A stretch of 64,000 bases of DNA from Aotearoamyces nothofagi (lineage: Eukaryota > Ascomycota > Leotiomycetes > Leotiales > Tympanidaceae), in contig JADDTR010000022.1 of the NCBI GenBank assembly GCA_015345905.1, forward strand, positions 283,542 to 347,541. Reading direction: 5' to 3'. The notes under the pieces were generated by a model. It saw only the letters and a list, made by a program, of their open reading frames with translations. It searched no databases and was not told the origin of the DNA. The position numbers and the translations under genes are program-made. The first letter of the stretch is position 1. The number at the start of each line of letters is the position of its first letter. Below, in pieces: positions 30,792-59,541 of this stretch.

Positions 30792-32545
30792 CTACCGCAT
30801 CTTTTCAAGATCTTCTCCGAAAATCGAATTCACCATCTCGCCACCACGGATTGCCAGGATCGAAAGGAGAGTATCGCTCAACTAGAGGTTGCATCATTAG
30901 TAGGGTCCCATGAATGCACATACAATGCCTTGTCGATATTAGCGTTGGGGGAGAACTCACCCCATGCGTGCTCTCGTTACAGCCCTGGAGCCACACCCCA
31001 GACGAGGTCTCGATTTTACCGCTATCATACTGCACTCTGTAGTCGCGTGCCACCTTGAATTCATTGTCGGCGTCATTCTCCGATAGGAGATCTCTCGTAT
31101 TCTTGAGGATCTCCTCGTGGGCGTCGCGCACATATCCTGTCGCAGCGAAAACCATGCTGCATCTCAGCTCTTCAAGAGGTGCTTGCCTTCCCGCTTCCAC
31201 ATCTTTTGTCGGTGCGACCTGCAAAATAAGACCTTGCTGGTCGGTATCTAGCGAGGCTGTTAGCCGCTCAGTCGCTTGATGATGAATGGCTATACTGACC
31301 ACTGTGGGCGCGAACCACTATGCGGTTTGTGATAATACGACATCGCCACTTGCTCTCGTCTGGCTCTTGGATTCTTTGCAGGTAGAGTTTCTCATAGATG
31401 CGCTCTAATAAGTTAAGACGCACGACGCCATAGTTGGTTCCTCGATCCAAGTCAATTGCTTTCTGGCGTTCCTCGGCATCTTGTTGGTATATTCCATCAA
31501 CTCGATCGGGATCGAAGATTTCATTGACGCTGTAGACGTGTTAGCAAACTCATCTTGTAGCTTCATATTAGATCCACAGGATAAAGTAGCAATAGGAGGG
31601 AATGATGGACTCTATGCGATGATGGGTTATGCCACAGATATAGTGCATTCAAACTTACAAGGGCGAGTCATCACTAGGACGTAATGATGCCCCTCGGATG
31701 AGGAGCAGGATCTCAGCCTCTGGATATCTCGTCCACAGGTCGTTAAATATTTCAGCTCCACTCTGGCCGTTTCCAACTACAACCAATTTGGGCCGCTTTA
31801 CTGCTGGCTGTGAGAGGAAACAGGCGGTTTGCTTCATTGTCGTTGCATACTGGCTTGAATGAATAACCCTTGGCACTGCCCCAGTGGCAAATTGCATGAA
31901 TTCATCCGGTATAAGAGCTCTACCCCCAGCTGCGACCACAATATTCCTTGCCAAGGCATGGCAATATTTAAAACTAGTCTGTTCATCAAGCCAAGACACT
32001 TTAAAGCCCCGAACTCTTCCAGATGCTGAATCAATGCCATTGTGCTCCACACTCACAACGTTAGAGCCATATTTTACCGCACTCTCGAAATGGTCGGCGC
32101 ACCATCGCAGATAGTCCTGATACTCCAACCGGGAAGGAAGGAAAGTGCCCAAGTTGATAAAGTGGTTTAATCGTCCCATTATGTGCAAATAGTTGGTAAA
32201 GGTGAAAGGACTCGTCGGATCACGTGGCGTAGCAAGATCCTTCATAAATGATATCTGCATCTTTGCGTCTGGCAGCTGCATACCCGAATGCCAAGAGAAT
32301 TGATCCTGCTTCTCGAGGAAGAGCACTTTTGGGAGACGGCGAGATGACGGCGGAAGCGAGGCATAATTGTCGGCGAGAGCGATCGCAATGGCCAGTGACG
32401 CAGGACCAAATCCTATACAGATCATATCTAGAAGCTCGACATTTTCAGGCTCAATCTCTCCCAGTTGGCGTGCTATCGCCAGAGAGTTGGTACCGACGCT
32501 TTGCTGCCAGGTGCTCCCAATCGGGTATGATACTGGAGTCTCCAT
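30792..32545 (-). CDS. sidA: L-ornithine N5-monooxygenase (siderophore biosynthesis)
   Basis: Four exons (32545-31659, 31529-31300, about 31247-30961, 30881-30792) give about 497 residues, close to the family's usual 500. The enzyme hydroxylates the side-chain amine of L-ornithine with FAD, NADPH and oxygen, the first committed step of hydroxamate siderophores. FAD-binding CIGFGPASLAIAIAL is near residue 43. The substrate-loop motifs FLEKQDQFSWHSGM and MQISFMKDLATPRDP follow. The NADPH-binding VVVGNGQSGAEIF is near residue 255, and FAATGY comes before the C-terminal GLSDTLLSILAIRGGE. The third intron is short: 52 bases if it ends at 31248, or 43 with the upstream AG at 31257; both keep frame. 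The start is the first ATG in the frame. It is divergent from the NRPS across 1.7 kb. Confidence 0.95.
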
Positions 32546-33080
32546 CTTGTTTCCCAATGGCTCGAGTGGTTGAACTTGTTTGACGGGTGCATGGGCTGGT
32601 GGGCAGTACAGTACATATATCACTGCGATGTTAAAAAGCTGAATTGGCTATGGGACGAGAAACAGCATCAGCTAATCCCCAAGTACCATCACACGCGTGT
32701 CGGGATAGTGGAGTGGGATATGATATCTATTTAGTTGAGTATCATTCCCACGACTGCTGAAAACCGGCGCCCCCTCTAGTCGAAATAGTGGCATCAAAAG
32801 CCAATAACAGCAGTTACAGCATGGCGTGATACTTTGTTGGGCTTGAATTGTCTCCAATAAGAACCGCCCTGCCAAGGCGGGGATCTGGTGATAAGAAATC
32901 AACCAACTTTTGGGAAGCATTTTAGACATGTGTTTGATCAGGGTCCAGCGGTTAGTCCCCCACCTTAACCATGGGTAGACGACTGGAAGAATACTCCTTA
33001 AACAACAGGAGTCCTAGGATAGTCGCAAGGAATGCACGCTTAAGAAGCAAGCTGGATATAAGTATTGTGGCTGTGAACAT

Positions 33081-33095
33081 CCGCTAGAATAGCGG
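33081..33095. promoter_or_regulatory. Perfect palindrome CCGCTA-GAA-TAGCGG
   Basis: Six-base perfect arms around a three-base centre. The ends are CCG and CGG separated by nine bases, the inverted arrangement typically bound by dimeric Zn2Cys6 proteins. It sits about 535 bases upstream of the hydroxylase start and 1.15 kb upstream of the synthetase start. A Zn2Cys6 gene lies 3.5 kb beyond the synthetase. The link between them is a guess. Confidence 0.5.
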
Positions 33096-33884
33096 TGTTG
33101 ACACATTTCAACCCGTATACCTTGTCCGCGAGCTTCTGACGCGATCGTGACGCAATCCTTCCTCGTTCCTTGCCCTCGGTAATGAAGGGCCCGTTTCTGG
33201 GATGCAGGAATGCCGGATCTGGCCCAACAGCACCAGCAGCAGGAGGAGGAGCAGAGAAGAAGGCCCAGCCCCGCGAAGTAAGGATGACCTGCCACGACGG
33301 CCGAGTCGTCTATGGATGCCAGCGGGCGCACCGCTTTGCTAATCCGCACACCGTGAATGGCCACGTCGGCAGGCACGCAGGCGAGCTAACACCCCGGCAA
33401 GCGCTGAATCTCGAATCTCGAATCTCGAATCTCCTGCGCAGAGCCGCATTTCTCCGTACCGGGCAGCCGGGGTGGAGATGGCCAATTGCCGCTCTCCTGG
33501 TCGCCCGCCAGATATCCAGGCCGCTGTGCCGATGCAGTCGAGTAGATATGCCAAAGTCACCGAAAGGCGTCTGAATCCCTCCTTCTTTCTCTACCACTCA
33601 CAGCACCAGCCATTTGCTATGGTATTCGGCCAAAATAATCGTGCAAGAGGTTTTTGGGACAGGGGATTTGCAGCCAATAGGATACCTTCGCCCTGCCGAT
33701 TCCCTCTATATAAATGACAGCGAGAGGACTTGCTATGTACTCTTTTGCCGTTTAGATGGCCTAATACCACAGCATATCGGCTTTCTTTTCTGCCAGCTCC
33801 GATCGCGGCATCGCTTCTGCGCGTTGGGATTGCTATCCCTACTCTCGTGACAGGGGGACCTGTGTATTACGTAGGTCGGGAAAA

Positions 33885-33893
33885 ATCTGATAA
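33885..33893 (+). promoter_or_regulatory. Iron-GATA (SreA/Urbs1-type) site ATCTGATAA
   Basis: An exact match to the ATCWGATAA consensus recognised by fungal iron-responsive GATA repressors with two zinc fingers (SreA, Sre1, Urbs1). It lies 350 bases upstream of the synthetase start codon, in the promoter shared with the hydroxylase. In the known systems this factor represses siderophore genes when iron is sufficient. That the site is used here is inferred from its position. Confidence 0.7.
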
Positions 33894-34241
33894 GATTAGA
33901 CAGCGACGGGAGCGAGTCACTCCACTCCACATAGCTCGGCCTTTAGACGGATCGAGTCCTTTACACGTATATTGTGTGTAGACCATGCCTCCGCCTCTGA
34001 CTGCAGCTGACCTCTGTCTACGAAGCATATGAACGCCGTTTGCGTCTTCGATTAAACGCCAGGTGTTCGGAGTCGCACGTTCCGAGTTACGCCTTCGGAC
34101 TTACGCTGCCGGACTGCGGATGCCCTGACTCCCTCATATGTTAGCTTGGAGCGCAAAAACCTTGGCCTTCCTCATGATCTTTGCGTCTTCACGTTAGACG
34201 GCTATATCGGTTCCCTTTCGGGGCAGGTAACTGTGGCCGCT

Positions 34242-37200
34242 ATGAGTGAACGACTCTCGGTCCTGAATGAGAATCCCAAGATCCTGCCAGGCCCGCGGCA
34301 CCTCCACAGACTGATACAGTGGGAACAGCATGGAGATTCCACCGCCCTTGAATTCCTCGGTGAAAACGGGCTTTGTCACAGGTACAATTACAAGGAATTG
34401 CGATATTGCGTCTCTTCTTTGGCAGCAAACCTCCGAGATATATTGGATGTCACGTGCAAGCATCGTGATGGCCCACAACCGATCATACCGATTTTGGTGC
34501 CTCAATCACCAATCCTCTATATTTCAATCCTAGCAATTCTTGAAGTTGGTGCCGCCTTCTGTCCTATAAATCTTGATGCGCCTCCAGATCGAATAAAATT
34601 TATTGCTGGAGATGTCGCTGCCAGTGTTATCATTTCTAATCGCGACAACGAAGCCGCCGTGACCTGGAATGGCGGGCCATCAGTACTAATTGTTGACGAT
34701 GCCCCGGAAGTTTCTCGAGTAGATTCCAAAGTATTAGACTCTCATAACAAAGAACCTGGGAATCTGGCATATGTTATGTATACGTCTGGATCCACGGGTA
34801 CGCCGAAAGGAGTCGCTGTGAGCCACCTAGCCGTGTCGCAATCGCTCTTGGCCCATGATAGACACATCCCTAAGTTCAATCGATTTCTTCAGTTTGCCGC
34901 GCCTTCTTTCGATGTCTCAGTCTTTGAGATATTTTTTCCTCTATTTCGAGGGACAACTTTGGTCGGTTGCAGCAGAGGAATGCTGCTTAATGATCTGACG
35001 GGTATCATAAACAAGCTCGAAGTAGATGCTGCGGAACTAACACCAACTGTTGCTGGATCTTTGGTTCAGAAAAGGTCGAACGTTCCTGGATTGAAACTTC
35101 TGTTGACTATCGGTGAAATGCTTACACGACCGGTTGTGGACGAGTTTGGACAGTCCGGATCGACTGTCGGAATGCTTTATGGCATGTATGGGCCTACGGA
35201 GGCTGCTATACACTGCACCATCAATCCTCTCATGAGGTCAGGAGCCAAGGTTGGCGGCATTGGTGTGCCTCTTGATACTGTTTCGACATTCATTGCAGCT
35301 ACCGAAGAGTCGCCTAGCAAGGTAGGAGAAGTGATGCTGTTGCCAATTGGTGAAGTTGGCGAGCTTGTACTCGGTGGGCCACAGCTAGCCGAAGGATATT
35401 TAAACCGAGACGAACAGAATAAGGCAGCATTTGTATCACTCAGAGGACAGAGGGCTTACAGGACCGGAGACAAAGCTCGGATGCTTGAAGATGGCACTAT
35501 TGAAGTTCTGGGACGCATCAGTGCTGGGCAGGTTAAGCTACGTGGACAGCGAGTTGAATTAGGCGAAATTGAAGAGGCCGTTTATAAGAATCCTCGTATC
35601 AAGACCGCAGTGGCGACCGTTCTTCATGGCATACTTGTTGTATTCGCCCTGAAAAGTAGTCCAGACATTACTTCAGATCAGGTCTTGGAGACATGTCGTC
35701 TCTGGCTTCCAAAATTCATGATACCCAACGAAATCGTACTGTTGGATAACTTTCCATACTTGCCATCAGGGAAGATTGACAAGAAACGGCTAGAGTCAGA
35801 CTACCATAACCAGAGATCAGAAGACAACATACTTGATCCGATCGAACCGACTGCAACGGAACGCCTCATCAGCAAGGCAATTAGGGACTTGTTAGGAGTG
35901 AACGTTAATCCTACTAAGCGATTGGCATCTTATGGCCTTGATTCTCTCGTAGCTATCCGCCTTGCGTCTTCACTTCGACTATCTGGGTTTAACCTATCTC
36001 CGGTCCAGATTCTGCAGGCCGAGACCTTGGTCTCAATCGGCCGGCTCTGTGATGATCCTCGGGTAGAGCAAGATGCCTCGTTAATACACCCTGTACAAAA
36101 CAATTTCAAGGATTTGCGGGAAGCGGCTGAGAAACTTCTTGGGAATGATGGGATTACAGACGCTGTTGAGGATGTGTTACCCTGTACGCCACTGCAGGAT
36201 GCAATGCTTGCGGAGACTGCTAATGACGCTCCTTCATATAAAAACAACGTTAAGCTTCGACTATCACGGAGTACTGATACAGAGCATGTGCGCCTTGCTT
36301 TGCATTTGCTAGTGCAGCATAACCCAATACTTCGTACAGGCTTCATAGAATGTCCAAGTTCCTATAGTGCCTATACTCAGGTTGTCTGGAAGACATTGCC
36401 GGACACACAAATCATTACGACGAACGAGTTCGTTTGCGACATTGAACATCTACGACAATTTTCTATCCTTCATCCGTTGTATATACAAATCAAGCAGCAA
36501 AGAAACGAGGTAGCAGTTCTTCTTCACATACACCATGCTCTTTACGATGCCTGGTCCCTGGAGCTTTTACTCGACGACTTAGACTCTATCATCTCCAATA
36601 AACAAGTACAATCACGGCCCTCATTTCGCACTATTATTGACAACTATTTTAACGTCAATGAAGGCTTAAACCCATGGACATTGAAAGAGTATTGGAAGGA
36701 CCATCTTGCGCAAATCGATCCCATCCCACTTCCAAACTTTTACTGCACCGTAAATAACGAGCGTGGATTGAAAGTCTCCGAACTTCAAACGTCCATCACG
36801 ACATCGGATCTGGAAGCAGCTGCTCGTTCTCTATATGTTAGCCCTCAGTCTCTGATTCAAGCTGCATACGCACTCATTCTGAGCTCATATGTTGGCAACA
36901 AAGATGTCTGTTTCGGCACTGTGTTTTCAGGTCGAACTTCACCAATTCATGGCATCGAAAATGTTGTCGGTCCTTGCCTGTCGACCCTTCCACTACGGAT
37001 AGATATCTCAACCTTGTCGACAGTGAAAGAGCTGATTCAAAGTCTAAATTCAACAGTCCGAAAACATCTGGAACACGATGCTTTACCTCTCCGCGAAATT
37101 AGGAAAGCTATTGATATTGATCCGGGACGCCCATTATTTGACTCGCTCCTTATTTGGCAACAAACCCTCCACGATAACCAAAATGAACGGAATAATATTT

Positions 37201-40200
37201 CATTAGTTGCTTCTACTGACTTCCTTGAGTTTAACTTGACTTTAGAAATCACTCCAAGCTCGGGAACGATCCATCTCAAAGCCAATTACCAGCAGGCTTT
37301 ATTTCCGCCAGAACAAATACAAATTCTTCTTCGTCAAGTTGAGCAGCTCGTTCAAGCATTTACTCGATCCGAAGACCTCCTATTAGATAAAGCCTGTGCC
37401 GTATTAAGCAATGATCTGTTATCACTTGAGAACACCACACCGGCTACTACACAGCACAGATCGCTTGCTGCATCTGTAGAGATGGTAGCCGCCGAGGAGC
37501 CAAACAGGCCTGCGATAGACATCGCCCATTCAGTTGAACCTGAAAATGTGAAAATCGAACGAATAACTTATGGGGAGCTAAATTCAAAGGCTAATAAGAT
37601 TGCGCAATATCTGGTATCAATCGGTACATTACCAGATGAGTTGGTATGCATCTGCATGGAGAAGTCACCTGAGTTATACACATCGATTCTTGCTTCAGCA
37701 AAGGCTGGAGTTGGATATCTACCTGTTACGCCAGATACTCCCCAAGATAGGCTGAAACGCGTAATTTCCCAGGCCAAGATCAATTTCATTCTTACGAGTT
37801 CGCGATGGAGCGGACAGCTGGATAATATTGCATCCGCTAAAATTATCTTGGTTGATAAGCTCGATCTTCATTTATTGCTAGATAAGAACCTGCCGGTCAG
37901 GTCTAGTTCTGAGAACCTAGCATACTGCATATTCACATCTGGAAGTACAGGCGTCCCAAAAGGTGTTCTGCTTACGCAAGGCAACCTATCCAGTAATTTG
38001 GAAGTCCTGGCGGAGCTATATCCCCACACAAAAGGAGCGAGACTCTTGCAGTCTTGTTCACAGGCTTTCGATGTGTCTGTATTCGAGATCTTCTTTACAT
38101 GGTATATCGGTGCATGTCTATGCTCTGCAACCAAAGATATCTTATTCCGAGACCTAGAGTTGTCAATTAGGACGCTCGAAGTTACCCATCTCAGCTTAAC
38201 ACCAACGGTCGCTGCTTTAATAAGACCTGAAAATGTGCCAAAGGTCAAGTTTCTTGTCACTGCTGGTGAATCTATGACGCAGAAGGTCTTTGATACTTGG
38301 GCAGACCATGGACTTTATCAAGGATATGGACCTAGTGAGACGACCAATATATGTACTGTAAGACCAGAAGTAACGAACAGACACGCGATCCACAACATCG
38401 GTCCTCCGCTCAAGAACACCTCTGTGTTTGTACTTGCGCCTGCAGGGGATTTTAATCCTATTCCGCGTGGCGGAGATGGAGAGCTCTGCTTTGGTGGTGC
38501 ACAGGTTGGAAGAGGATATCTTGATGCGAGCCACGAAGCTGGGAGGTTCTTTGACCACCCAGATTACGGACGTCTATATCGTTCTGGGGACTTTGGTCGC
38601 CTACTCTCCGATGGTTCCATAACTTTCACAGGAAGACAAGATGATCAAATTAAGATTCGTGGTCAGAGAGTTGAGCTTGGGGAAATCAATAGTATTATCT
38701 TGAAAGATCCAGAGGTTGGCGACTGTGTCACCATTGTTATTCAAGGTGGTAACCAGGATGCTCATCGCCTGGTTAGCTTCTGGACTACTACTATGGCGCT
38801 ACAATCGAACTTCACTATTCTTAAGCTAGATTCTACAATTATTGAGCGACTGTATTCATCACTGGGAGCTTCGCTTCCATCGTACATGATCCCTTCAGCT
38901 CTTATTCCCATCTCATGTCTTCCGTCGACTACACAAGGCAAGATTGATAAACGACTTCTAGCAAAGAACTTTCAATCCTTGAGCATTGACTACCTTGATC
39001 AAGCTTCACGTTCTCAGAAGTTGGTAACTAATGAATCATGGACTGATTTGGAGGAAAAAATTGCAAAGGCTGTCTCACTGATTGCCAACGTACCCGATTC
39101 CTCTATCGGTCCTAATACTTCTTTCTTCAGTCTAGGCATTGACTCGATATCTGCAATATCCTTGATTCATACCCTACAGAATGACTACAAAATCCGCGTG
39201 GAGATCTCAGACGTACTTAAACATGCTTCTGTTTCTCGACTGGCTGAGCGAATATTGCACAAGACAAAAACTACCAGAAAACCTACAGAATCGCCCACTC
39301 CCCAAGATTTTGGATTCAGTACTGAATTCCTTCAAGTAACCAAGGACAACTTTGCCGAGGGAGGAAGAAATATCGAGCGTATTTTGCCATGCACACCATT
39401 ACAAGAAGCCATGCTATCAGCTACAGAAGATAGCTCGCAGCAGGCATATAGTAATTATGTCCTTCTTAACCTGAATATCGGTATCGAGGAGTTCGAGAAT
39501 GTCTGGAAACAGATGGTAGAACGGCATGAGATTTTACGAACTTGCTTCATGGCAACCGGCCTGTCACGTTTTGCGTATGCGCAAGTAATCTTGAATAAAT
39601 TCATATGTCACTCGGAAGTGGTGAACAGCACTGGAAGAAAGGTCTCAGAAGTTGTGGAGGAGCTAAACTTGAAAGCTGTCCACAGGATGCAATCTGACCC
39701 TCCCTATAGTCTCAGTTATATCCGTTCACCATCATCCACCAAGCTTCTTCTATCAATGCATCATGCACTGTACGACGGATTCGCTATGTCCATTTTATTT
39801 GAAGAGGTTGAGAATGTGCTACATAAGAAAGATATTCCTCCGCCAGTCTCATTCGAACCATTCCTAAAGTACATCAGTAATGTGGATATTTCAGTATCTG
39901 ACGCTTACTGGGACAAGCTCTTGGCTGGATTTAAACCAACCCCTCTTCCGCGCTCCAAGTATAGCGCGAGCGAGCGAGAACAGGTAGAAAATGGAAATAA
40001 GGTCACTCGGATAAAGTCCCAACAAACATTTAGCTGGATAGAAGAGCAAGTAAAACTACACTCTTCATCTCTGTTATCAGTCTGCCAGGCTGCATGGGTA
40101 TCTGTACTTGGTTCAAAATTTGAAGAGGCAGATATCTGCTTTGGTAATGTCGTCAGCGGCCGGACGGTGCCGGTTGAAAACCTCGATCGGTTGGTAGCAC

Positions 40201-43200
40201 CATGCTTCAATACCATCCCTGTCAGGATCGTGGACTTACACAAGTTGTCTTTTCTGGAGGTATTTCGCACGTTGCAAGCACAGAATTCAGATAGTCTGCC
40301 CTTTCAGATGAGCGCGTTACGTCGCATTCAGTCAAGATGCAGTTTAGACGGGGTTCGGCTCTTTGACACCCTCGTCCTTCTACAACCACCAGCGAGGGAA
40401 CTTGATCCATCTATATGGTCGATCGAGGAAGATGGCGGGGCAATGGACTTACCAGTAGTCGTTGAAATTGTCTCACATCGTGCTGATGATAGCCTGGAGT
40501 TGATTCTGCATTCTGATCGCACAATCTTGTCGCCAGACGAGGCATCGGCATTGCTCAAGAATTTCGACTCAATCTTGAAGAAATCACTGCGGAATCCTCG
40601 TAACCAGATCCTACCCACCAAGGCCCGAGATTCTTGGGCTGCCAAATCAGAATCCCGCAGAAACGGCCAAAGAGCAAATAAGGGAACTCATGAGGACGAC
40701 GGCGAACCTGTGACTGGCATTGAATTAGAAATCCGCGATGTCATAGCGACATTTACAGATGCTTCTCAAAATAGTATTGGCCGTAATACTAGCATCTACC
40801 GTCTTGGCCTCGACAGTATTAGCGCTGTGCAGGTTGCGGCTGCTCTTCGAAAGCAAGGACACAGTGTAGTGGGAAGCGATGTGCTCCAGAACCCAACTAT
40901 CAAGCAATTGGCGTCACATCTAATAGGCCACCCAGAATCTACAGAAACCGTGTTAGAAAAGTTTGACTTTCACTTATTTGATAGTCAGCACCGTGCGAGT
41001 ATCTGTGGAAGACTCGATATTGCCGCCAACGATGTTGAAGCAATCCGTCCATGTACCCCTGTTCAATGCGGCATGTTAGCTGAAACCTTGCACTCCGGCG
41101 GCAAAGAATACATCAATAGCTTTTGCATGAAATTGGCTTCCGGAACGTCGTTAGAAAGGTTGCGGTCTGCTTGGGAATCGGCCATAAAACGCCATGAAAT
41201 GCTACGAACAGGTTTCGTGGAGATCGAGAGCTCAAAATACCCCTTTGCCATGGTTACATATACCGAAAGCGCTACCTCCTTTCCCGATCTTGAACGGCAC
41301 GGTATATCTTCTGATGGCATCGCAATTGAGCAAATTTCTCGGCAACCTTGGAATCTTCGGCTTATTCAAAACGGGGATCGATTCCTTATCAAGTTCACCG
41401 CACATCATGCCGTCTATGATGCTCAATCGTTGGAATTGATTTTATCGGATGTGACACAGAATTATTATTCTAGTATCGCGCCTCAATTCCAGTCAATTGA
41501 ACCTCTTCTGGGAGCCATTTTGGTTAGGAGTGAGCACGTCGAAGAGAAACAAAGGGTGTTCTGGCAGAATGAGAACAAAATATTCGTTAATAAATTTCCA
41601 GATCTTACGCCTCTGCGAGTAACCAGTACTCGAAGTTTTTCGAGAGAGAAATATTCCAATATCTCTCTTGAGAAGCTGGAACAGCTGTGCAGAGATCAGG
41701 ATGTCTCGGTTCAAGCTGCTGGACAAGCCACATGGGCCCGTATTCTGTCGGCATATATTGGAGAAAGTTCTGTTACTTTTGGCATGACTCTATCTGGGCG
41801 GTCTATATTGGAGAATTCCGAAGGTATCGCATTCCCAACGATAGTCACGTTGCCTGTTAGCTACGACATCTCAGGTACCAATGGAGAACTTCTTGCTTGG
41901 ACAATGCAGAAAAATGCTCAACTTCACGAGTTTCAGTTTACTCCATTAACGTCTATTCAAAAGTGGGCGGGCTATCCAGAGGGCAAGATGTTTGATACTT
42001 TGTTCGCATACCAGAAAACATCAATTCCAATGGGAAAGATCGAAGCACCATGGGAAGTTGTGAATGAAGAAGCCTCTGCAGACTATGCAGTATCAATTGA
42101 GCTACAGCCAACTGAAGACGGAGCCTTATTGCTTCGACTCACCGCGAGAGAGAATATCGTTCCAAGGGAACAAGCAGATCTTATACTCAAGCAATTCGAT
42201 GCCTTGCTCTCTGATATATTGAATAATAGCTCTGGCCCCAGCTCTCTTCTTATTTCTCTCAATGAGGAATTACTTTCAATAACCCCAGCAGTTGAACCAG
42301 TTTTATCAAGCTCGACCAAATTACTTCATGGCTTTGTATCTAAACGCGCCGTTAAGTTCCCGCATAAGGTTGCGTTGGAGTTTACTACGAGCCTTGGACC
42401 AGGCAACGTAGCCATGAGCGCGTGGACATACGAGCAACTGAATGGTGAAGGCAATAGAATTGCTAATTTTATCATCAAGCGGGGTGCAATACAGGGCCAA
42501 TTAATTGCCATTTGTTTTGATAAGTGTCCCGAGGCGTCTTTTTCGATTATCGGTATCTTAAAGGCTGGGTGTGCGTACGTTGCGCTCGACCCAAATGCTC
42601 CACCTGATCGAACAAAGTTCATACTTGAGGATTCCAGAAACAAAATTATTCTGACAGCTGGCAAGCCTGCTGATATGCTGAAGGATATGATGGATGGTGA
42701 CAGTGTTCAAGTCATAGACGTTGGCAATCCAAAATCTATAAAGGATTCCTCAACAAACACGCCTGTCCTATCCAGGCCTATCGATCCTCAAGATACGTGC
42801 TACTGCTTGTATACATCTGGAACAACGGGTACACCTAAAGGCTGTGAAATAACCCATGAAAATGCCGTCCAAGCCATGCTTGCCTTTCAATACCTCTTCG
42901 CCGGGCACTGGTCTCCTTCCTCAAAATGGCTTCAATTCGCATCTTTCCACTTCGACGTCTCAGTTCTCGAGCAATTCTGGAGTTGGAGTGTTGGAATCTG
43001 TGTCGCTTCAGCTCCAAGAGATCTCATTTTTGAAGACATCCCTGGCGCTATTAGACAACTTGGAATTACCCATATTGATCTCACCCCTAGCTTGGCGAGA
43101 CTACTGCATCCTGACGAAGTCCCTAGTTTATGTAAAGGCGTATTTATTACTGGTGGTGAACAGCTAAAGCAGGAGATTTTAGATGTATGGGGGGAGAAGG

Positions 43201-46200
43201 GGTGCATATACAATGGGTATGGACCGACTGAAGCTACTATCGGTGTCACTATGTATCCTCGCGTACCCCAAAATGGAAAGCCTTCAAATATCGGACCACA
43301 GTTCTTGAATGTCGGCTCATTTGTTCTCAAACCTGGTACTAGTAAGCCTGTCCTACGAGGAGCGGTTGGAGAACTCTGCGTATCTGGCAAGCTTGTTGGA
43401 AAGGGATATTTAAACAGGCCCGATCTTACCAAAGAAAGGTTTCCATACCTCAAAGATCTAGGCGAGCGAGTATACCGTACTGGCGACCTGGTGCGAATCC
43501 TGCATGATGGCACCTTCCTTTTTCTGGGTCGAGCAGACGATCAGGTCAAACTTCGTGGCCAAAGGTTAGAGTTGACAGAAATCAACGAGGTTATCAAAAA
43601 GAACGTTGAGGGACTACAAGAAGTCGTTACGCTTGTATTAAAGCATGTCAAGCAACAGAAAGAACAACTAGTGACATTCTTCGTTACAGCCCAAAATCAA
43701 AATATGAACAAACCGACCTCTTCAGAGCTTATCACCCTTATGCGAGATGCTTGCAAGGGGCATTTGCCTGGATACATGGTCCCAACGCACTTCATTAGCT
43801 TGGAATCTCTTCCACTATCTGCAAACAATAAAGCTGACTCAAAGCAACTGGCCAAATACTACAACGACCTTAGTATTGAGGATTTACAACGCCTAGGCGT
43901 AGCGGGCCAGTCGAATAGGAAGTGGACAAGCACAGAACAGGATGCGTTACATGCACTGGCAGGCGCTCTTTCCGTAGAGCTATCTGCACTGACTCCCGGA
44001 ACAAATATCTTTGAGCTTGGAGTTGACTCGATCTCCGTGATTGGATTGAGTCGATTGCTCCAGAAAGCGGGATATCAAAACGCAAAACTTACAGTAGTGA
44101 TGAAGAACTCATCAATCGAATCCCTTGTTAAAGTTATGATTGGCGAAGAAAATGCCGACAAAGATCAACACAGTTCACATATTGCTGCCATCCAAAGTGT
44201 TGCTGCATTTTCTCATCAGCATATGGTTGATGTGGCGGAGGAGCTAAATATTGACTCGTTTTCTATTGAAGCGTTGGCACCTTGTACGGCTGCGCAAGAG
44301 GGAATGATTTATCGATTCTTGGACAGTGAGGAGGCTTTGTACTTTTCCAACTTTGACTTTGAGTTGGATAAGGAAGTTGATGAAGATCGCCTACAATCTG
44401 CTTGGGAAAGAGTCGTTGCAAATTTGCAGGTCCTAAGGACAAAGTTTGCTCTTACTAGTGATAGATGTGCACAGGTTGTTCTGAGAGAGGTTGAACTTCC
44501 ATGGAATGTCATCAAATGTGACGCCCATGAAGATTTGGAAGAGGTCCTCTGCCAAAGGCATCTGGAATACAATAGGATGAAGAAGCTAGCAGCCCTAGAA
44601 CGACCATTCCGCATATCGATTATAAAAGGGTCAAATCGCCGTGTTATGTCACTCGGTATTTTTCATGGAACGTATGACGGTGTCAGTCTTCCGATTATTC
44701 TGGAAAGGGTGTTTGAGGAATATATCCGTGCTCAAGACATTGACTACGGGCCCGCATTCCATTCAGTCTTACCATATGGCCCACTTGCTCAACTTGAGAA
44801 TGCTGAGGCTTTCTGGCGGCAAATACTTATCGATGCTGAAGTTAATCTAATCCCCCAACTCGACGAAAGCAACTCTCAGAGCGACGTCTTCATCTCTAAA
44901 ACAATTGCCACTCCTGCCCATCTCGAGCCGCTACGGCAAAGCCTCGGTGTAACCTACCAGGCTGTCCTCCTCGCCGCCTGGTCAAGCGCTCTCAAATCCT
45001 ACCTCCACTCTCCCAGTATTCCAACTCTCGGAGTCGTAATATCGGGTCGCTCAATCGACTTTGAAGACGCCGATAAAGTTATTGGGCCTCTTCTCAATAC
45101 GATTGTCTTTCATGTTAAGACCGAGCCAGGAATGACCTGGAATGGGCTTATTAAAGCATGCCATGAGTACAATACTGCTGTTCTGCCGTATCAGCATACA
45201 CCATTGAAAGATGTACAGCGTTGGTGTGGAATGGGACCCGGGCAACAATTGTTTGACACATTATTTGTATTTCAGAGAGAGGGAGATGCTGATGGGAACG
45301 GTGAAGAGAGACCTTGGAAAGAGTTGGAAACAAAGCCGGTCGCAGATGTGAGTATTATCATCTAAAGAGTTACTGGCACTTATTGACGTGAATATAGTAC
45401 CCACTAGCATTTGAGGCACAGCTCAATAACGACAGTACTATCGGTTTAACTATCGCTGGTCAAGGGTCCTATCTCTCCCAGGAGATTGTCTCCGATCTTC
45501 TTACAGATGTCGAGAAAATGTTACAGAACCTTCAATCGCCCGATGAACCTATTCCACAGTTAAATAAATCCGTTGCTATTAGCCGCGCTAAGGGTCCGAA
45601 TAAAAGCCGTGAGGCTAGGGTCGACAACTCCTTAAAAACCAGCGAGGCATTCAGCTGGACGCCAGCCGCTGAGAAAATCAGAACAGAGATCGAATTGTTG
45701 ACAGAAACAAAGTCATTCAATGAATATACATCCATCTTTGAGCTAGGGCTTGATAGCATCGACGTCATTAAGCTTGCATCAAGACTCAAGAAACGAGGAG
45801 TTCATATTTCAGTTAGCGCCATTGTCAAAGCTCAATCAATCGCAAGTATGATTGGGCAGATTTCAAAGACAGATATTGCAACTCATCAGGCTGATACAAC
45901 GATCAAAGATTATGAAGAACGGCTAACACAGTATCTACGGGGTGTTGGCAAACTTGGTAAAAATGTGGTCGCAGTGCTACCCGCTACACCACTCCAGGAG
46001 GGCATGGTTGCTGAGATGCTGAGTTCGGAATATCAGAGGTATTTCAACCACGAATTATTCCGTGTCGCACGAAATGTGGATATCGATAAGCTCTCGGGAG
46101 CTTGGGAAAGAGCTGTAAAGGAATTTGACATCTTGAGGACAGAGTTCGTGGAGATTGACGACGTTGACTTGCCTATGAGCTTTGCGCAAGTCATTAATGG

Positions 46201-49039
46201 GCCAACAGGAGGTGCGTGGTGGACTGTTCAACTTCCCGAGAAAGCAGACCTGGAAGCAAAGACTGCACAGGTAATCTCCAGCACTACGAGGGGTGCAGTT
46301 CGTGGTCGCTTAGGCGGGCTTCTGCGACTTACAGGCTTCAAGCATGGAGAAGACTGGTATTATGTGCTTTCAATTTCGCACGCTCTTTTTGATGGATGGT
46401 CCCTTCAGGCGCTACATGCAGATGTGCAGAAAGCATATAATGGGGAACCAATAACCCGACCTGATCCAAGGCCTACGCTAGAGCAGGCTATCAACTCAGA
46501 GGGTCCAGATGCAACAAAGTTCTGGCGAACAAGCTTAGCTGAACTTCCTAGGTCGAGCTTTCCGACAAATGATGATCATCGCCAGGAATCTATAGAGGTC
46601 GTTCATAGGGCTGAACGTCCATCACATATCGCTTTGGATGCAATCCAATCTTTTTGCCGCTCCGCCAATATTAGTCTACAAACCCTCGGCCAGACAGTCT
46701 GGTCCCTACTTCTTGCAAGCTATCTACAGAGCCTTGATGTTGTCTTTGGCGTGGTTCTATCTTGCCGAGATACCGAAGAGGCAAACGAGCTTATGTTCCC
46801 TCTCATGAATACCGTCGCTGTTCGATCCGTCCTGCATGGCACATTAGCTGAAATGCTTCGCTACGTGCAAGATAACAGCAATGCAATTCGGCAGTACCAA
46901 CACTTCCCATTGCGGAAAGCCCAGGCTCTGTCTGGGATCAAAGAAGGAAATCTTTTTGACACGCTGTTCATCTACCAGGGACGAGCTAGAAATACACAGC
47001 CGAATGAAGAGAAGCTTTATGAGCCTATCGAGAGCAAGTCGGAAGTCGAATTTGCAGTATGCGTTGAGATGGAGGTTTTTAATAATGAACTCGTCTGGAG
47101 GACGGCTTGCAAAGACTCTGCGAGAACGGCTGAGCAGACAGATGCACTACTTGATAGCCTTGATAAGGTGCTTGGGAGGATTATTGAGGACTACAACAGC
47201 CCGACTATCGTATCGAACTCTGAAGGAATCTCCATCTGCGGCCTTCCCGCTTTCCACGACAAAAGATTGGCAATCAAAGAGAACAGCAATGTTTCCAGGT
47301 CGGTCGTTAGTACCGACGACGAAGAATGGACAGGCACAGAATCTATCATACGAACAGTCCTATCTCGCGTATCTAAAGTCCCAGAATCCGACATAAACAA
47401 AGACCAATCAATATTCCATCTCGGACTGGACTCCATTAGTGCGATCAAGGTATCATCAATTTTGCGCCGCGAAGGGATTAGACTCGGCGTCAATGATATG
47501 ATGAAGAATAATTCTATTAGAAATATGGCTATTTTCATTGATGGGATAGATGTCAATGCGATTGAGAAGCTAGAAGACGTAGAGAAGGTGCTGAGTGAGG
47601 CAATGAAGGATGTTGACCTTCGTACCACCCTTCGGGATGCAAGAATCGAGAATGACAGTGCGGAAGATATGCTTCCGGTCACGGCGGGACAGTTATATAT
47701 GCTAGCACGATGGACGGCTTCTGGAGGAACGATATTTGCTTCACAGTTCAGATACAAAATCTTGGGCCAATTGGACAAGGATAAGCTTGAGCGGGCTTGG
47801 AGAGCACTCATGAAGCACCATCCGATCTTGAGGACGGTGTTTGTACTTACAAGCAAGGCACAAGTATCTGCTGTACAAATCGTGCTGAATGAAATCAAAA
47901 ATGATATCAGATGGACCTCTGCTCCTTCACAAGACAGTCTATCACTCCTGGCACCACTGTCTTTGACCGTGGAGACAGGTAGTGATGAACAAGTGTTGTC
48001 CCTTCGAATTCATCACGCGCTCTACGATGCCATAAGCCTGCCACTCCTGCTAAAGGATCTTCAAACGCTCTACACGAATATCGAAACCCCACTGCGATCA
48101 CATCCTAGCTTCCGCGATTTCTTAGGCCAAAGTCTTGACATAAATCTGGCAACAAGGCAGCGTCGTCGTGAATTCTGGACGTCGTATCTCCCAAGGCAGA
48201 CAAATTTCAGCAGCAGCAATAGCAATTCGTTCACGTCATTAGCTAAAAAGGTCGAAGCCTTCCGACCAAGCCTTCCAATTGGGAATCTCGCTCCCATCGC
48301 GCAGAAATTGGGGGTCTCGGTTGATGCATTAATCCTCTCTGCATTTTCCCGCGTTTACCATCATATCATCTCTGATAACCAGAGCCAAGATGTTGTATTT
48401 GGGCTCTATCTTTCAAACCGCGCCCCTTACGGCGACGACCTCTCAAGTCTTGCAGCGCCAACACTCAATCTCCTACCAATCCGTATCAAAGGAGCCGGAA
48501 ACGATACAGGACTCCATGAACTGGCAAGGAACGTGCAGACAGACTTACAGAAGCTCAGTTCTAGAGAAGTCGTCGGGACAAGCTTAAAAGAGATCTGGGA
48601 GTGGACGGGCGTGAAGGTTGATTGCTTTGTTAATCTGCTCAAGACTCTGACTAGCGATGAGAACGATTCCTCATCTCGTAGTATGGTAGATGAGATATTC
48701 GATCTCGATAGCGAAGAGGAATATCTGAGACGGCCAAGAGCAGCTGTCGTAGATCTCAGACCTATAAATAAGACAATTCAAGCTCAAGCTGAGGCTGGAG
48801 CTAGTTTGTTTGAAGCATATCCGGTACGTCACCCGTATAGAAAGAGGCGCAGGAATGCAGAAAATATACTGAAAATACACCAGGAATCAATTGATATCGA
48901 AATGCGCGTCACCGATGATGGACAAGGGCTAGATCTCGGGATTTTTGCACCCGTCGAACTACTCTCTCTCGACGATGCGGAGAGGATCGTTTCGGAGCTG
49001 CAGGACATGTTGGGATCGCTTATGGAAACGGAGTCGTAG
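34242..49039 (+). CDS. sidC: Ferrichrome-type siderophore NRPS (SidC/ferricrocin synthetase class)
   Basis: Exons 34242-45347 and 45398-48823 plus probably 48884-49039 give about 4,895 residues. Order of domains with key motifs: A1 (TSGSTGTPKG, ~181), T1 (YGLDSL, ~564), C1 (HHALYDA, ~764), A2 (TSGSTGVPKG, ~1230), T2 (LGIDSI, ~1631), C2 (HHALYDG, ~1840), T3 (~2188), C3 (HHAVYDA, ~2388), A3 (TSGTTGTPKG, ~2856), T4 (LGVDSI, ~3259), C4 (FHGTYDG, ~3475), T5 (~3818), C5 (SHALFDG, ~4029), T6 (~4377), C6 (HHALYDA, ~4573). Three A domains, an extra T-C after module 2 and a terminal T-C-T-C are the layout of this class, which builds a cyclic hexapeptide iteratively and closes it with a C-type domain rather than a thioesterase. 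All six T domains keep the serine for phosphopantetheine. The start is the first in-frame ATG. The exact product cannot be read. Confidence 0.93.
45348..45397 (+). other. Phase-0 intron inside the fourth condensation domain of the NRPS
   Basis: Donor GTGAGT at 45348 and acceptor TAG at 45395-45397 enclose 50 bases with an in-frame stop. Splicing joins KPVAD to YPLAFEAQLN and restores the end of the condensation domain. Without it the reading frame would stop after about 3,706 residues. Confidence 0.9.
48824..48883 (+). other. Probable in-frame 60-base intron near the NRPS C-terminus
   Basis: Donor GTACGT and acceptor ACCAG enclose exactly 60 bases with no stop, so the frame stays open either way. 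The encoded 20 residues are very basic (PYRKRRRN) and do not resemble the surrounding condensation domain. Removing them joins LFEAYP to ESIDIEMRV, which reads as a continuous strand-like segment. I favour a real intron; a retained form would only add the basic insert. Confidence 0.6.
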
Positions 49040-51068: not shown

Positions 51069-52115
51069 CTATTTAATCCGATTTACCGACGTGAGCGGTC
51101 TCCCCTTCCCCCCATAAAAAAACTCCTCCAGGTTGTCCAACAACGACTTATCGAAATTCCTCCACGTCGTTCTGGAACACGCACCCACATGCGGCAGCAC
51201 CGTAACCATATAATTATCCTTGAACGCCGCATTAATACCTGGTTCGTTCTCGTGCACGTCCAAGCCCACGCCCACAACCCTTCCCGATTCCAAAGCCCTC
51301 AGCAACGCCTTCTCATCAATCAGTCTCCCTCTTCCGATATTCACAACCCTGACCCCTTCTGCCTTGGCCATCTGAAACTCCTTTGTCGACAGCATATGAT
51401 GCGTCTCAGGCGTATACGGACACGCCAGACAAATACAATCTGCCACCTTTACCAAACTCTGCAAACTCTCGTGATACACTGCACCACCCAGCACCCTCTC
51501 CTCCGCGCCCTCGTTCCTCCTCCGGTTGAAATAATGCACCCGCATGCCCAGTCCCGCCGCCGCCTTCCTCGCGATCTCCAGCCCAATATCCCCCATCCCC
51601 ACAAGACCCAGCACGCGCCCACGCGGATCCTCCGCAACCGGGCCCAGCGCAAAGCTGCGCCTCCATTCCGTCCGCGCGCAATGCTCCGCGAAGCTGAAAT
51701 ACCGAAACGCACTTAGGATCAGATACAGCGCTGTGTTGGACACGCTCTCGGTGCCCGCGAAAGGCGTGTTGCAGTACCAGATGCCCATCTCGGTGAGCCG
51801 GGGCACGTCGGCTGAGTCGTAGCCGTGACCCGCGCACAGGACGATCTTCAGCGACGGCGGGTAGTGCGACAGGTTTTCGGTAGCGAAGATGAAGTGATTC
51901 GAATAAGGCTCGGCTTTCCACCAGCCGGTTCGCACAATTGCTTCAATATGGCTATATGCGCCGCCGGGCGCCAGACGGGCGTGGAATTCGGCGGTAGACG
52001 AACAGTCGTAGAGGATTATGTTGAATCGTTCTTGTACGCGGGCCCACTGTACGGGGTCGACTTCGCGCACGGCAGAGGTCACGAGGAGGACACTGGGCTT
52101 TTGGACACCTTCCAT
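51069..52115 (-). CDS. D-isomer-specific 2-hydroxyacid dehydrogenase (glyoxylate/hydroxypyruvate reductase-like)
   Basis: A single exon of 348 codons. Enzymes of this family reduce 2-keto acids such as glyoxylate or hydroxypyruvate with NAD(P)H. The Rossmann motif GMGDIG is near residue 170. The catalytic arginine is in NIGRGRLIDE, the glutamate in LDVHENEP and the histidine in LPHVGACS. The residue after the last beta strand of the nucleotide site is followed by NRRR, which favours NADPH. The gene converges on the transaldolase; the two stop codons are only about 105 bases apart. The start ATG at 52115 gives a normal family N-terminus (KPSVLLVTSAV). No targeting signal is seen, so cytosol is likely. 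Confidence 0.9.
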   Translation of the reverse strand: MEGVQKPSVLLVTSAVREVDPVQWARVQERFNIILYDCSSTAEFHARLAPGGAYSHIEAIVRTGWWKAEPYSNHFIFATENLSHYPPSLKIVLCAGHGYDSADVPRLTEMGIWYCNTPFAGTESVSNTALYLILSAFRYFSFAEHCARTEWRRSFALGPVAEDPRGRVLGLVGMGDIGLEIARKAAAGLGMRVHYFNRRRNEGAEERVLGGAVYHESLQSLVKVADCICLACPYTPETHHMLSTKEFQMAKAEGVRVVNIGRGRLIDEKALLRALESGRVVGVGLDVHENEPGINAAFKDNYMVTVLPHVGACSRTTWRNFDKSLLDNLEEFFYGGKGRPLTSVNRIK

Positions 52116-52544
52116 AATGCTAGACTTGGCCGGGTCGGTAACTTGTGTGAACAGGTTCAGGCTGTTTTCTGATTCTACTAACGACTTTTGAAGACCGTAC
52201 TTCCCGACGTGAGGTGTGGGGACGGGAGGCTATCGTGGAGGTGGGTGGGTCCGGTAGCCGTGTGATTGTGCGTCAGATCGGTTATTGAAGATTCTGCCGA
52301 AACTATCGTCACTGACATTGTACTTGTACTATAATTATAGTACATAAAAAGGTGAGCCAAAGCCCACCATGTGTGATGGCAATTTTGATATCCTAAGTAT
52401 TTTATATCGTTTGAGCCGGTCCTCCAGCGCTATTTCCTAGGTCATCTCTGGAGCTAGTCTATCGATGTGAAGATGAGAACTGGATGGTAGGCCCAGGTAC
52501 TTGGTTGAATGAGATGCAGGAGTTATAACCCCATCCGGTTCGAC
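52116..52544. other. Spacer upstream of the 2-hydroxyacid dehydrogenase
   Basis: About 430 bases between the 2-hydroxyacid dehydrogenase start and the stop codon of the zinc-cluster gene. It contains a TATAATTATAG-like AT block near 52325-52345, likely part of the dehydrogenase promoter. No gene is seen. Confidence 0.5.
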
Positions 52545-57179: not shown

Positions 57180-58527
57180 ATGGGTTCGATCGGTCCCTCG
57201 TCACATTTCTCGTCCCTTCCGACTGCGGAGGGCGACCCCGCCTTCGGCCTCACAATAGAATTCGGGAAGGACCCTCACCCGGACAGAGTCAGTCTCGGCG
57301 CCGGCGTGTACCGCGATGAGAACGGGAAGCCATGGCTGCTTCCTGTTGTGCGGAAGGTCGAGATCGCGATCAGCCAAGATCCGAACGGTGACCACGAATA
57401 CCTGGCAATTGCGGGCCTTGCGGCACTCTATACGCAGGCGAGGGATATAGTGTTCGGCACCGACAAGGAGAGGGATGTGGCTATCGTGGAGAGGATCGCG
57501 AGCATTCAGACCATTTCAGGCACGGGCGCGAACCATGTGGCTGCGAAGTTTCTGTCCGATACCATCAAGCCGCGATCGGTGTGGATTAGCGATCCAACGT
57601 GGTCGAACCATCATTTGCTGTGGGAAGTGGGGGCACCACAGGTAGAGCAAAAGCTGTATCCATACTACAAGGCGGACACGAAGTCGTTTGATTTCGAGGG
57701 CATGCTCCAGAAGTTGAATACCGAGGCGCAAGAGGGAGATGTGATACTTTTGCATGCGTGTGCGCATAACCCCACTGGATTGGATCCCACAAAGGAGCAA
57801 TGGAAAGAGATTGCAAAGGTTATCCAAAAGAAGAAGATTTTCCCCTTCTTTGATATCGCCTACCAAGGCTTTGCGTCGGGAGACCTTGATGCGGATGCTT
57901 GGGCTGTTAGATACTTCCTCACCCTCCCGAATATCGAATTCGCTGTCGGACAGTCGTTCTCAAAAAACTTTGGATTGTATGGCGAGAGAGTCGGGGCATT
58001 CCATCTTGTCACATCGTCGTTAGCTGCCAAGGTACAGGCTTTCAGCCAGCTTGAGCGATTACAGCGTGGAGAATGCTCGACACCACCTGCATATGGTGCC
58101 AAGATTGTTTCTACCATTCTCGCTGATCCTCTACTATGTGAAGAGTGGAAGAGCAATGTTCGGATTATGAGTGAACGCCTAAAGGGGATGCGGAGAGCTT
58201 TGTACAATGAGTTGCAGAAGTTACAAACTCCCGGGAGTTGGGAGCATATTATCAAACAGGTAAGAAGACCATGTTCGAGCTTAACCGACACCAGCTGACA
58301 TGGAACCCAAGATTGGAATGTTCTCCTACACCGGCCTAACCAAGCCCCAAGTCCAGGCGTTGAAGAAAGACTACCATATTTATGCATTAGAAAGTGGTCG
58401 TATTTCGGTTGCCGGCTGTAAGTATGCTCCTTCACCTTGGCGAATTGATTCTAACACACTCGCAGTAAATCCTAGCAATATAGAATATGTCGCAAAGGCA
58501 TTTGATGCCGTCGTACGAACTGTGTAA
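57180..58527 (+). CDS. Aspartate aminotransferase (PLP-dependent, class I)
   Basis: Three exons (57180-58259, 58312-58417, 58466-58527) give 415 residues. The enzyme exchanges amino groups between aspartate/2-oxoglutarate and oxaloacetate/glutamate. The PLP lysine is Lys262 in SFSKNFGLYGERVG. Other family marks are LGAGVYRDENGKPW, SGTGANHVAAKFL, WISDPTWSNHH, HACAHNPTGLDPT and FFDIAYQGFASGDLDADAWAVR. The C-terminal IGMFSYTGL and YALESGRISVAGLNPSNIEYVAKA blocks are rebuilt by the two introns. There is no clear mitochondrial presequence (MGSIGPSSHFSSL), so the cytosolic form is more likely. Oxaloacetate links it in metabolism to the malate dehydrogenase far upstream, but not in gene order. Confidence 0.94.
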
Positions 58528-59388: not shown

Positions 59389-59486
59389 TGATACATGATA
59401 CGTAGTGTATGAGGGCAGTCCCATCATTGACAGGATATGATACATGATACGTAGTGTATGAGGGCAGTCCCATCATTGACAGGATA
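59389..59486. repeat. Perfect 49-base tandem duplication
   Basis: Two adjacent copies, 59389-59437 and 59438-59486, both beginning TGATACATGATACGTAGTGT and ending CATTGACAGGATA. No differences are visible, so the duplication is recent or the copies are being kept alike. Confidence 0.93.
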
Positions 59487-59541
59487 TTTTCCAAAGGTTC
59501 ATAAACTATATTAAGGTTCTCCTGCTAAATACGAAAGTACC

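What the first reader, a model, noticed from the sequence alone, without database searches (positions are those of the whole stretch)
30792..49039. Divergent hydroxylase-synthetase locus for a ferrichrome-type siderophore
The sequence shows an ornithine N5-monooxygenase and a three-A-domain NRPS ending in two T-C pairs, sharing one promoter. Known SidC-class synthetases with this layout make ferricrocin or ferrichrome. No transporter, acyltransferase or ABC exporter is in the window, so I infer an intracellular storage siderophore, with the N5-acyl step encoded elsewhere.
Basis: partly seen in the sequence, partly recalled or inferred. Interest (0 to 1): 0.75.

Follow-up and report, generated by a model that had tools for sequence, protein, structure and literature searches.

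The report
Fungal ferricrocin-type siderophore gene pair
This stretch of a fungal genome holds two neighbouring, oppositely facing genes that together very probably build an internal iron-storage molecule, a gene pair already known from related fungi, so the locus itself is ordinary, although the genome around it suggests a second, separate iron-chelator pathway.

Summary
The gene pair is real and lies at the stated coordinates. The minus-strand gene (four exons, 500 aa) is an intact L-ornithine N5-monooxygenase (SidA structures, E 2.8e-134). Predicted product: ferricrocin. Such a pair is already reported across Leotiomycetes (PMC6941272), so it is a new member of a known kind.

The surroundings are more interesting. 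The genome also holds a SidC-lineage Type II synthetase beside an ABC transporter (C9), a second ornithine hydroxylase with a SidF orthologue (C14), and a non-SidF, SidL-like acyltransferase 22.9 kb beyond this synthetase. No SidD/NPS6-like synthetase was detected. The two hydroxylases fall in separate clades; NPS2-linked members occur in the window's clade, none in C14's. SreA-type GATA sites concentrate in these promoters. I infer two dedicated hydroxamate pathways: acetyl (here) and anhydromevalonyl (C9/C14).

The parts
30792..32545 (-). L-ornithine N5-monooxygenase gene (SidA family), 500 aa, 4 exons: 32545-31659, 31529-31300, 31256-30961, 30881-30792; introns of 129, 43 and 79 nt, all GT..AG
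   Evidence: Splicing fitted to homologues by tblastn and translated; 451.6 bits over residues 36-498 to A. fumigatus SidA structures 4b63/6x0h; Pfam PF13434 at this place in the own-genome search.
31257..31299 (-). 43-nt intron 2 of the monooxygenase (GTCAGT...CTAACAG); at first it looked like a frameshift
   Evidence: the spliced product continues the homologue P0321 sequence.
32546..34241 (.). shared divergent intergenic region (1,696 bp)
   Evidence: Between the two start codons.
33885..33893 (+). ATCTGATAA, match to the SreA (iron-responsive GATA repressor) extended consensus ATCWGATAA; the only match in the 64 kb window
   Evidence: chance expectation for the whole window 1.34; consensus from PMC2610380; pooled enrichment at the genome's siderophore promoters.
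34242..49039 (+). NPS2-lineage Type IV ferrichrome-family NRPS, 4,915 aa, exons 34242-45347 and 45398-49039
   Evidence: N-terminus and splice junction agree with homologues.
45348..45397 (+). 50-nt phase-0 intron (GTGAGT...TATAG); the database protein of relative P0003 carries an insertion at the same place, as if the same intron were retained
34374..35807 (+). A1, code DVFELIMIHK (ten positions as FgNPS2 and ChNPS2 AMP1; 16 of 17 extended positions; predicted Gly)
   Evidence: table in PMC2644324.
35844..36056 (+). T1 (GLDSL)
36159..37376 (+). C1 (HHALYD)
37551..38975 (+). A2, code DVFSVAGNIK (ten positions as FgNPS2 and ChNPS2 AMP2; 14 and 16 of 17 extended positions; predicted Ser)
39033..39260 (+). 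T2 (GIDSI)
39366..40601 (+). C2 (HHALYD)
   Evidence: Type IV definition in PMC2644324.
42411..43865 (+). A3, code DVLDIGGIGK (identical to ChNPS2 AMP4 in 17 of 17 listed positions; 9 of 10 and 16 of 17 with FgNPS2 AMP3; predicted N5-acetyl-N5-hydroxyornithine)
   Evidence: also hits SidN A3 structure 3ite.
43917..45547 (+). T4-C4 (C4 spans the intron)
45650..47197 (+). T5-C5
47321..49036 (+). T6 and terminal C domain, putative cyclising CT
   Evidence: the CT role is inferred from SidC (PMC10192304).

Best explanation
The locus is the ferricrocin-type pair of a Leotiomycete-like fungus. The monooxygenase hydroxylates the side-chain nitrogen of L-ornithine. An acetyl-CoA transferase, most likely the SidL-like gene further along the same contig, makes N5-acetyl-N5-hydroxyornithine (AHO). 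The Type IV NPS2 synthetase then builds a cyclic hexapeptide: A1 loads Gly, A2 loads Ser, the A-less T3 is charged by an upstream A domain with Gly, A3 charges T4, T5 and T6 with AHO, and the last C domain cyclises and releases desferri-ferricrocin, used mainly as an intracellular iron store. Both genes are probably repressed when iron is plentiful by a SreA-type GATA factor. Shown here: gene structure, domain order, lineage, pocket residues and pooled motif enrichment. Inferred: substrates, cross-loading, product, location and regulation.
For: Domain order A-T-C-A-T-C-T-C-A-T-C-T-C-T-C, also in 5 of the 5 Leotiomycete-type NPS2-lineage homologues run with it (P0003, P0004, P0006, P0010, P0051). 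All three A domains lie in 7-row NPS2-lineage clades apart from SidC rows (support 100/99, 100/100, 100/100). Pocket residues equal ChNPS2 AMP4 at 17 of 17 listed positions for A3, and FgNPS2/ChNPS2 at the ten code positions for A1 and A2; the same procedure reproduces the published A. nidulans SidC rows. Type IV synthetases are predicted in print to make ferricrocin, with A1 reused on the internal T-C (PMC2644324); F. graminearum NPS2 is responsible for its intracellular siderophore (PMC4290682, title and abstract). The monooxygenase aligns with SidA over residues 36-498. SreA-type motif: 7 of 10 sites in 179,459 bases fall in 9,574 bases of six hand-chosen siderophore promoters.
Against: PMC2644324 itself says that the ten-residue code failed to predict substrates in this family, and its AHO, Gly and Ser assignments are model-based. 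PMC6941272 considers that the Leotiomycete NRPS2 may make ferrirhodin instead. AMHO precursor genes exist in this genome. There is no product or expression data. The SREA site in this intergenic region is a single one; one match in 64 kb is what chance gives (expected 1.34; 79 of 100 shuffles have at least one), so only its position and the pooled enrichment count. The window hydroxylase sits on a long branch.
Confidence: 0.82

Rival explanations
1. The window synthetase makes an anhydromevalonyl ferrichrome (ferrirhodin or ferrirubin type) that is secreted, using AMHO from the C14 genes.
For: [quoted passage not shown] cinerea and proposes NRPS2 as one possible source. A SidF orthologue is present (436.6 bits to A. 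fumigatus SidF) while no SidD-like NRPS was detected, so AMHO needs another user.
Against: A3 is identical to ChNPS2 AMP4 (predicted AHO) at 17 of 17 listed pocket positions. The C9 Type II synthetase, with a diverged A3 code (DVASGGAIGK) and an adjacent ABC transporter, is a better candidate, by analogy with E. festucae SidN, a Type II enzyme using AMHO (PMC3642064). The window hydroxylase is in a different clade from the C14 one.
Confidence: 0.12
2. One reading: a SidC-class (Type II) ferricrocin synthetase.
For: Same superfamily, three A domains and terminal T-C repeat.
Against: Extra internal T-C; 27-28% full-length identity to A. nidulans SidC, Botrytis P0125 and the own-genome C9 synthetase against 49-59% to the three Leotiomycete NPS2-lineage proteins compared (P0003, P0006, P0051); separate clades for all three A domains.
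Confidence: 0.02
3. A decayed or non-functional locus (the monooxygenase frame breaks several times).
For: The six-frame search of the genome reported 1 TGA and 1 TAA inside the match, and exon 2 to exon 3 looked at first like a frameshift.
Against: All breaks are removed by three GT..AG introns and the product is collinear with homologues. The GxDS motif is present in 6 of 6 T domains. The first His of HHxxxD is replaced in two of six C domains (C4 F, C5 S), as it is in the same two C domains of the Botrytis relative P0051.
Confidence: 0.03

Closest known systems
BcNRPS2 and the S. sclerotiorum cluster 9_5 pair (NRPS2 + L-ornithine N5-monooxygenase, Leotiomycetes; PMC6941272)
   Same: Clustering of a ferrichrome-family NRPS2 with an ornithine monooxygenase; B. 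cinerea protein P0051 has the same 15-domain order. That P0051 is BcNRPS2 is my inference; the record is unnamed.
   Different: 48.7% identity to P0051. PMC6941272 reports that the S. sclerotiorum homologue has a different module arrangement from B. cinerea. Here the two genes are directly divergent; in some relatives the locus-tag numbers suggest a gene between them (listings).
Fusarium graminearum NPS2 (Type IV)
   Same: Type IV architecture; codes identical at ten positions for A1 and A2 and 9 of 10 for A3.
   Different: Different class of fungi; the FgNPS2 sequence itself was not aligned here, only its published pocket residues.
Aspergillus nidulans/fumigatus SidC (Type II)
   Same: Ferrichrome family, ferricrocin product expected; A3 charging later T domains as shown for SidC (PMC10192304).
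   Different: No internal T-C in SidC; five T domains against six here, so the window enzyme would not need SidC's extra Gly ligation by A2 (inference); 28.0% identity to A. nidulans SidC; different lineage.
Epichloe festucae SidN (Type II, AMHO, extracellular)
   Same: Resembles the C9 synthetase of this genome more than the window one; its A3 structure 3ite is hit by the window A3 (279.4 bits).
   Different: Type II, AMHO-using, extracellular product (PMC3642064, passages).

Membership tests
[quoted passage not shown]
   profiles seeded from this protein's own domains, then trained on 13 proteins; Pfam: 3 A, 4+2 C, 4+2 T; definition in PMC2644324.
NPS2-lineage Type IV ferrichrome synthetase | A domains fall in NPS2-lineage clades | tested here: met
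   A1, A2 and A3 each in a 7-row NPS2 clade apart from SidC rows. NPS2 anchor: Xylona protein named NPS2 (P0096); FgNPS2 and ChNPS2 were not in the tree.
NPS2-lineage Type IV ferrichrome synthetase | Product ferricrocin (cyclic Gly/Ser/AHO hexapeptide) | not testable with these tools
   Needs chemistry; pocket residues only suggest it.
SidC / Type II (NPS1-SidC lineage) | A-T-C x3 then T-C-T-C, no internal T-C; A domains in SidC clades | tested here: not met
Sib1 / Type III | Degenerate second A domain and internal T-C after the first module | tested here: not met
   A2 matches Pfam AMP-binding over positions 3-384 of 384 (C22:321023-322063, 211.6 bits) and the T-C follows module 2.
SidD / NPS6 (fusarinine/coprogen) | Two-module enzyme with truncated second A domain | tested here: not met
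   4,915 aa with three full A domains; definition from PMC10192304 introduction. No SidD sequence was compared.
SidA (L-ornithine N5-monooxygenase) | Homology to SidA over its length, with FAD and NADPH motifs | tested here: met
   residues 36-498 aligned; GFGPAS and GNGQSGAE present (motif roles recalled). Catalytic residues were not checked one by one.
SidA (L-ornithine N5-monooxygenase) | Hydroxylates ornithine, not lysine | not testable with these tools
   Inferred: 451.6 bits to the fungal ornithine enzyme against 237.6 to lysine N6-monooxygenase MbtG.
SreA regulon | ATCWGATAA site in the promoter | tested here: met
   33885-33893, a single site; binding and iron response not testable here.

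The most novel reading that the evidence does not exclude
This fungus keeps two fully dedicated hydroxamate pathways, each with its own ornithine hydroxylase. The window pair (NPS2 + its hydroxylase clade, with a SidL-like acetylase) makes intracellular ferricrocin. The C14 genes (second hydroxylase, SidF, an AMP-binding ligase) feed anhydromevalonyl-hydroxyornithine to the C9 Type II synthetase with its neighbouring ABC transporter as exporter, making a secreted ferrirhodin-like ferrichrome that replaces the missing SidD/NPS6 siderophore. The hydroxylase duplication would be old, because both clades hold several Leotiomycete genera, and Cadophora sp. M221, Phlyctema vagabunda and Oculimacula yallundae have a member in each.
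Probability: 0.4. Interest if true: 0.5.

Novelty: new member of a known kind. Interest (0 to 1): 0.3.

Why it matters
The locus itself adds another Type IV NPS2 and hydroxylase pair. The genome context makes an open point testable: which Leotiomycete synthetase makes the ferrirhodin known from Botrytis and which makes the intracellular store. PMC6941272 leaves that undecided. It also suggests that fungi can split a shared first step (ornithine hydroxylation) between paralogues dedicated to storage and to uptake.

Tried and rejected
Frameshift or pseudogene reading of the monooxygenase: rejected. After tblastn with homologues the apparent +1 shift at about 31300 is a 43-nt intron.

SidC class for the window gene: rejected by domain order and tree.

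SidF as the acyltransferase on C22: rejected. The C22 GNAT protein matches SidF mainly over the GNAT domain (105.5 bits) while the C14 protein matches it over residues 28-450 of 462 (436.6 bits). That the C22 gene is SidL rests on elimination; no SidL sequence was compared, and a third, weak PF13523 match on C17 (28.5 bits) was not followed.

A SidD or NPS6 gene: none detected. The 14 condensation-domain matches (14 of 14 candidates scored) lie in the window gene (6), C9 (5), C6 (1), C32 (1) and a sub-threshold C1 match. C6 and C32 are PKS-NRPS hybrids by Pfam (methyltransferase, KR, carrier, C, A, carrier, reductase signatures). The 26 PP-binding matches (of 28 candidates) add no further locus with a C domain. 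Only 14 of 61 AMP-binding candidates were scored, so that search does not count as a negative. Assembly completeness is unknown.

SidH: nine enoyl-CoA hydratase matches, none near the C14 hydroxylase and SidF genes; inconclusive. Pfam on ten ORFs between the C14 hydroxylase and AMP ligase gave nothing. The AMP-binding ligase of C14 was not shown to be SidI. A siderophore transporter in the window: the MFS ORF at 17413 is weakly drug-type; not pursued. Gene order in relatives could only be judged from equal contig lengths and locus tags, not from sequence. No structure prediction was run.
Full report
WHAT WAS CHECKED. The window is G000:C22:283542-347541 of an unnamed 25.5 Mb, 55-contig assembly. 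The best named protein relatives of the large gene are Leotiomycetes such as Claussenomyces, Lachnellula and Cadophora (best 120 of 1,817 listed), so the source is probably a Leotiomycete; this is an inference.

THE TWO GENES. The plus-strand gene starts at ATG 34242, has one 50-nt phase-0 intron (45348-45397) and ends at 49039, giving 4,915 aa. Start and junction agree with six homologues aligned; one of them (P0003) carries an insertion exactly at the junction, as if the same intron were retained in its predicted protein. The minus-strand gene starts at 32545 and ends at 30792 with three introns (129, 43, 79 nt), giving 500 aa. An apparent frame change near 31300 is the 43-nt intron: the spliced sequence continues the homologues. 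The protein aligns to A. fumigatus SidA structures over residues 36-498 (E 2.8e-134).

CLASS. Profile searches, seeded from the protein's own A2, T2 and C1 and retrained on the 13 proteins searched, give A-T-C-A-T-C-T-C-A-T-C-T-C-T-C, the same as in 5 of 5 Leotiomycete-type relatives run alongside (P0003, P0004, P0006, P0010, P0051). Xylona NPS2 (P0096) shows a fourth A domain. C9, P0123, P0125, P0133 and P0204 show A-T-C x3 then T-C-T-C; A. nidulans P0222 shows the same except for two adjacent C hits after its first T, which I take as one domain split. By the published types this is Type IV of the NPS2 lineage (PMC2644324, Results parts 1 and 2 of 4 read). A tree of 40 A domains puts A1, A2 and A3 of the window each with NPS2-lineage rows, apart from SidC rows. 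Full-length identity is 58.9% to P0003, 48.7% to Botrytis P0051, and 28.0% to A. nidulans SidC.

SUBSTRATES. Pocket residues were read off an alignment anchored on A3. The positions are recalled from the GrsA scheme and were checked by the fact that the A. nidulans SidC rows reproduce the published table. Window A1 DVFELIMIHK and A2 DVFSVAGNIK equal FgNPS2 and ChNPS2 at the ten code positions. A3 DVLDIGGIGK equals ChNPS2 AMP4 at 17 of 17 listed positions and FgNPS2 AMP3 at 16 of 17; A1 agrees at 16 of 17 with both, A2 at 16 (ChNPS2) and 14 (FgNPS2) of 17. PMC2644324 assigns these Gly, Ser and AHO by structural modelling, while stating that the ten-residue code failed in this family (abstract; section on modelling, part 1 of 2). 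Six T domains, all with GxDS, match a hexapeptide; T3, T5 and T6 must be charged by another module's A domain. For Type IV, PMC2644324 speculates that A1 does this for the internal T-C. That A3 charges later T domains was shown for SidC (PMC10192304, introduction, one Results section and the model section read), not here.

THE REST OF THE PATHWAY IN THE SAME GENOME. Ornithine hydroxylase family: nine matches, three of them at two strong loci, C14 (340.5 bits) and the window (252.5 and 44.9 bits, exon by exon); the other six are at or below 30.8 bits. GNAT transacylase family: four matches at three loci. The C14 protein is SidF-like (436.6 bits over residues 28-450 of SidF). The C22 protein (355473-357098) matches SidF mainly over the GNAT domain (105.5 bits). 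It has a histidine aligned to position 130 of Rv1347c (1yk3), the residue that PMC11424930 reports as essential there and in S. pombe Sib3 (passages). So it is the SidL-like candidate, by elimination, 22,893 bases beyond the NRPS stop. A second large synthetase on C9 (open frame 111454-125082; its first exon was not resolved) has Type II order, A1 and A2 codes identical to A. nidulans SidC, and an A3 code DVASGGAIGK that agrees with SidC A3 at 7 of 10 positions. It lies beside a divergent ABC transporter. No SidD-like gene was detected; the limits of that negative are given under Tried and rejected.

TWO HYDROXYLASE CLADES. A quick tree held 99 rows: the 97 of 120 listed hits that have at least 440 aa, plus window and C14. 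The window and 23 hits form one clade, C14 and 34 hits another, and 40 hits lie outside both. A careful tree of a hand-picked 59 of these 99 rows (all 24, 23 of 35, and 12 of 40) gives the window clade 100/100 and the C14 clade 99/95. Three named taxa have a member in each clade: Cadophora sp. M221 (P0319, P0266), Phlyctema vagabunda (P0325, P0272) and Oculimacula yallundae (P0353, P0277). Limits: the roots are midpoints and differ between the two trees, so the age of the split and which clades are sisters are open. The window row has a long branch. The proxy misses short contigs and cannot give distance. The hits were gathered with the C14 protein.

REGULATION. The SreA-type motif ATCWGATAA (PMC2610380, passages seen) occurs once in the window, at 33885 in the shared intergenic region; chance alone would give 1.34 in the window. 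In 179,459 non-overlapping bases held from this genome, mostly around siderophore genes, there are 10 sites. Seven fall in 9,574 bases of six promoter stretches that I bounded by hand in the script that first counted them: window 1, C9 3, C14 hydroxylase 1, C14 SidF 1, C22 GNAT 1, C14 AMP ligase 0 (binomial P 1.3e-7, to be read with that in mind). The other three lie inside the C9 NRPS frame (115629) and at C14:170894 and 170955, between the hydroxylase and the ligase.

WHAT IS KNOWN. PMC6941272 (passages seen) states that the S. sclerotiorum homologue of B. [quoted passage not shown] sclerotiorum has three such monooxygenases, and that NRPS3 homologues cluster with an ABC transporter in some families. 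It leaves open whether NRPS2 makes ferrirhodin or ferricrocin. PMC3642064 (passages) describes SidN, a Type II enzyme using AMHO and making an extracellular siderophore. PMC4290682 (abstract) links F. graminearum NPS2 to the intracellular and NPS1 to a second extracellular siderophore. In seven paper searches I saw no title or start of an abstract about a split of Leotiomycete ornithine hydroxylases into two pathway-dedicated clades; the listed papers were not read in full and most subscription journals are not held.

VERDICT. The finding is real and correctly read in outline, with the class corrected from SidC to NPS2 Type IV. It is a new member of a known kind. The two-pathway reading is the part worth testing.

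Noticed in passing
G000:C9:111454-125082 (loci L025-L027): Second ferrichrome-family synthetase, Type II (SidC lineage), with SidC-identical A1 and A2 codes and a diverged A3 code; three SreA-type motifs in the 2 kb between it and the ABC transporter.
   Followed up: partly
G000:C9:104768-108881 (L025): Divergent ABC transporter (two ABC and two membrane-domain matches over two open frames) beside the C9 synthetase, a candidate exporter.
   Followed up: partly
G000:C14:165099-176960 (L030, L031): Second ornithine hydroxylase, an AMP-binding ligase and a SidF orthologue within 12 kb; no condensation domain was found on C14.
   Followed up: partly
G000:C22:355473-357098 (L034:473-2098): SidL-like GNAT transacylase candidate on the window's contig, with an SreA-type motif starting 27 bases before the open frame.
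   Followed up: partly
G000:C14:170894 and 170955: Two further SreA-type motifs 61 bases apart in a stretch where no ORF scanned had a Pfam match.
   Followed up: partly
G000:C6:49858-57678 and G000:C32:188341-196371: Two PKS-NRPS hybrid genes with methyltransferase, KR, C, A, carrier and terminal reductase signatures.
   Followed up: partly
   Followed up: partly
window 51072-61818: Downstream genes: 2-hydroxyacid dehydrogenase (-), Zn2Cys6 regulator (-), class I/II aminotransferase (+), zinc alcohol dehydrogenase (+); no obvious siderophore role.
   Followed up: no
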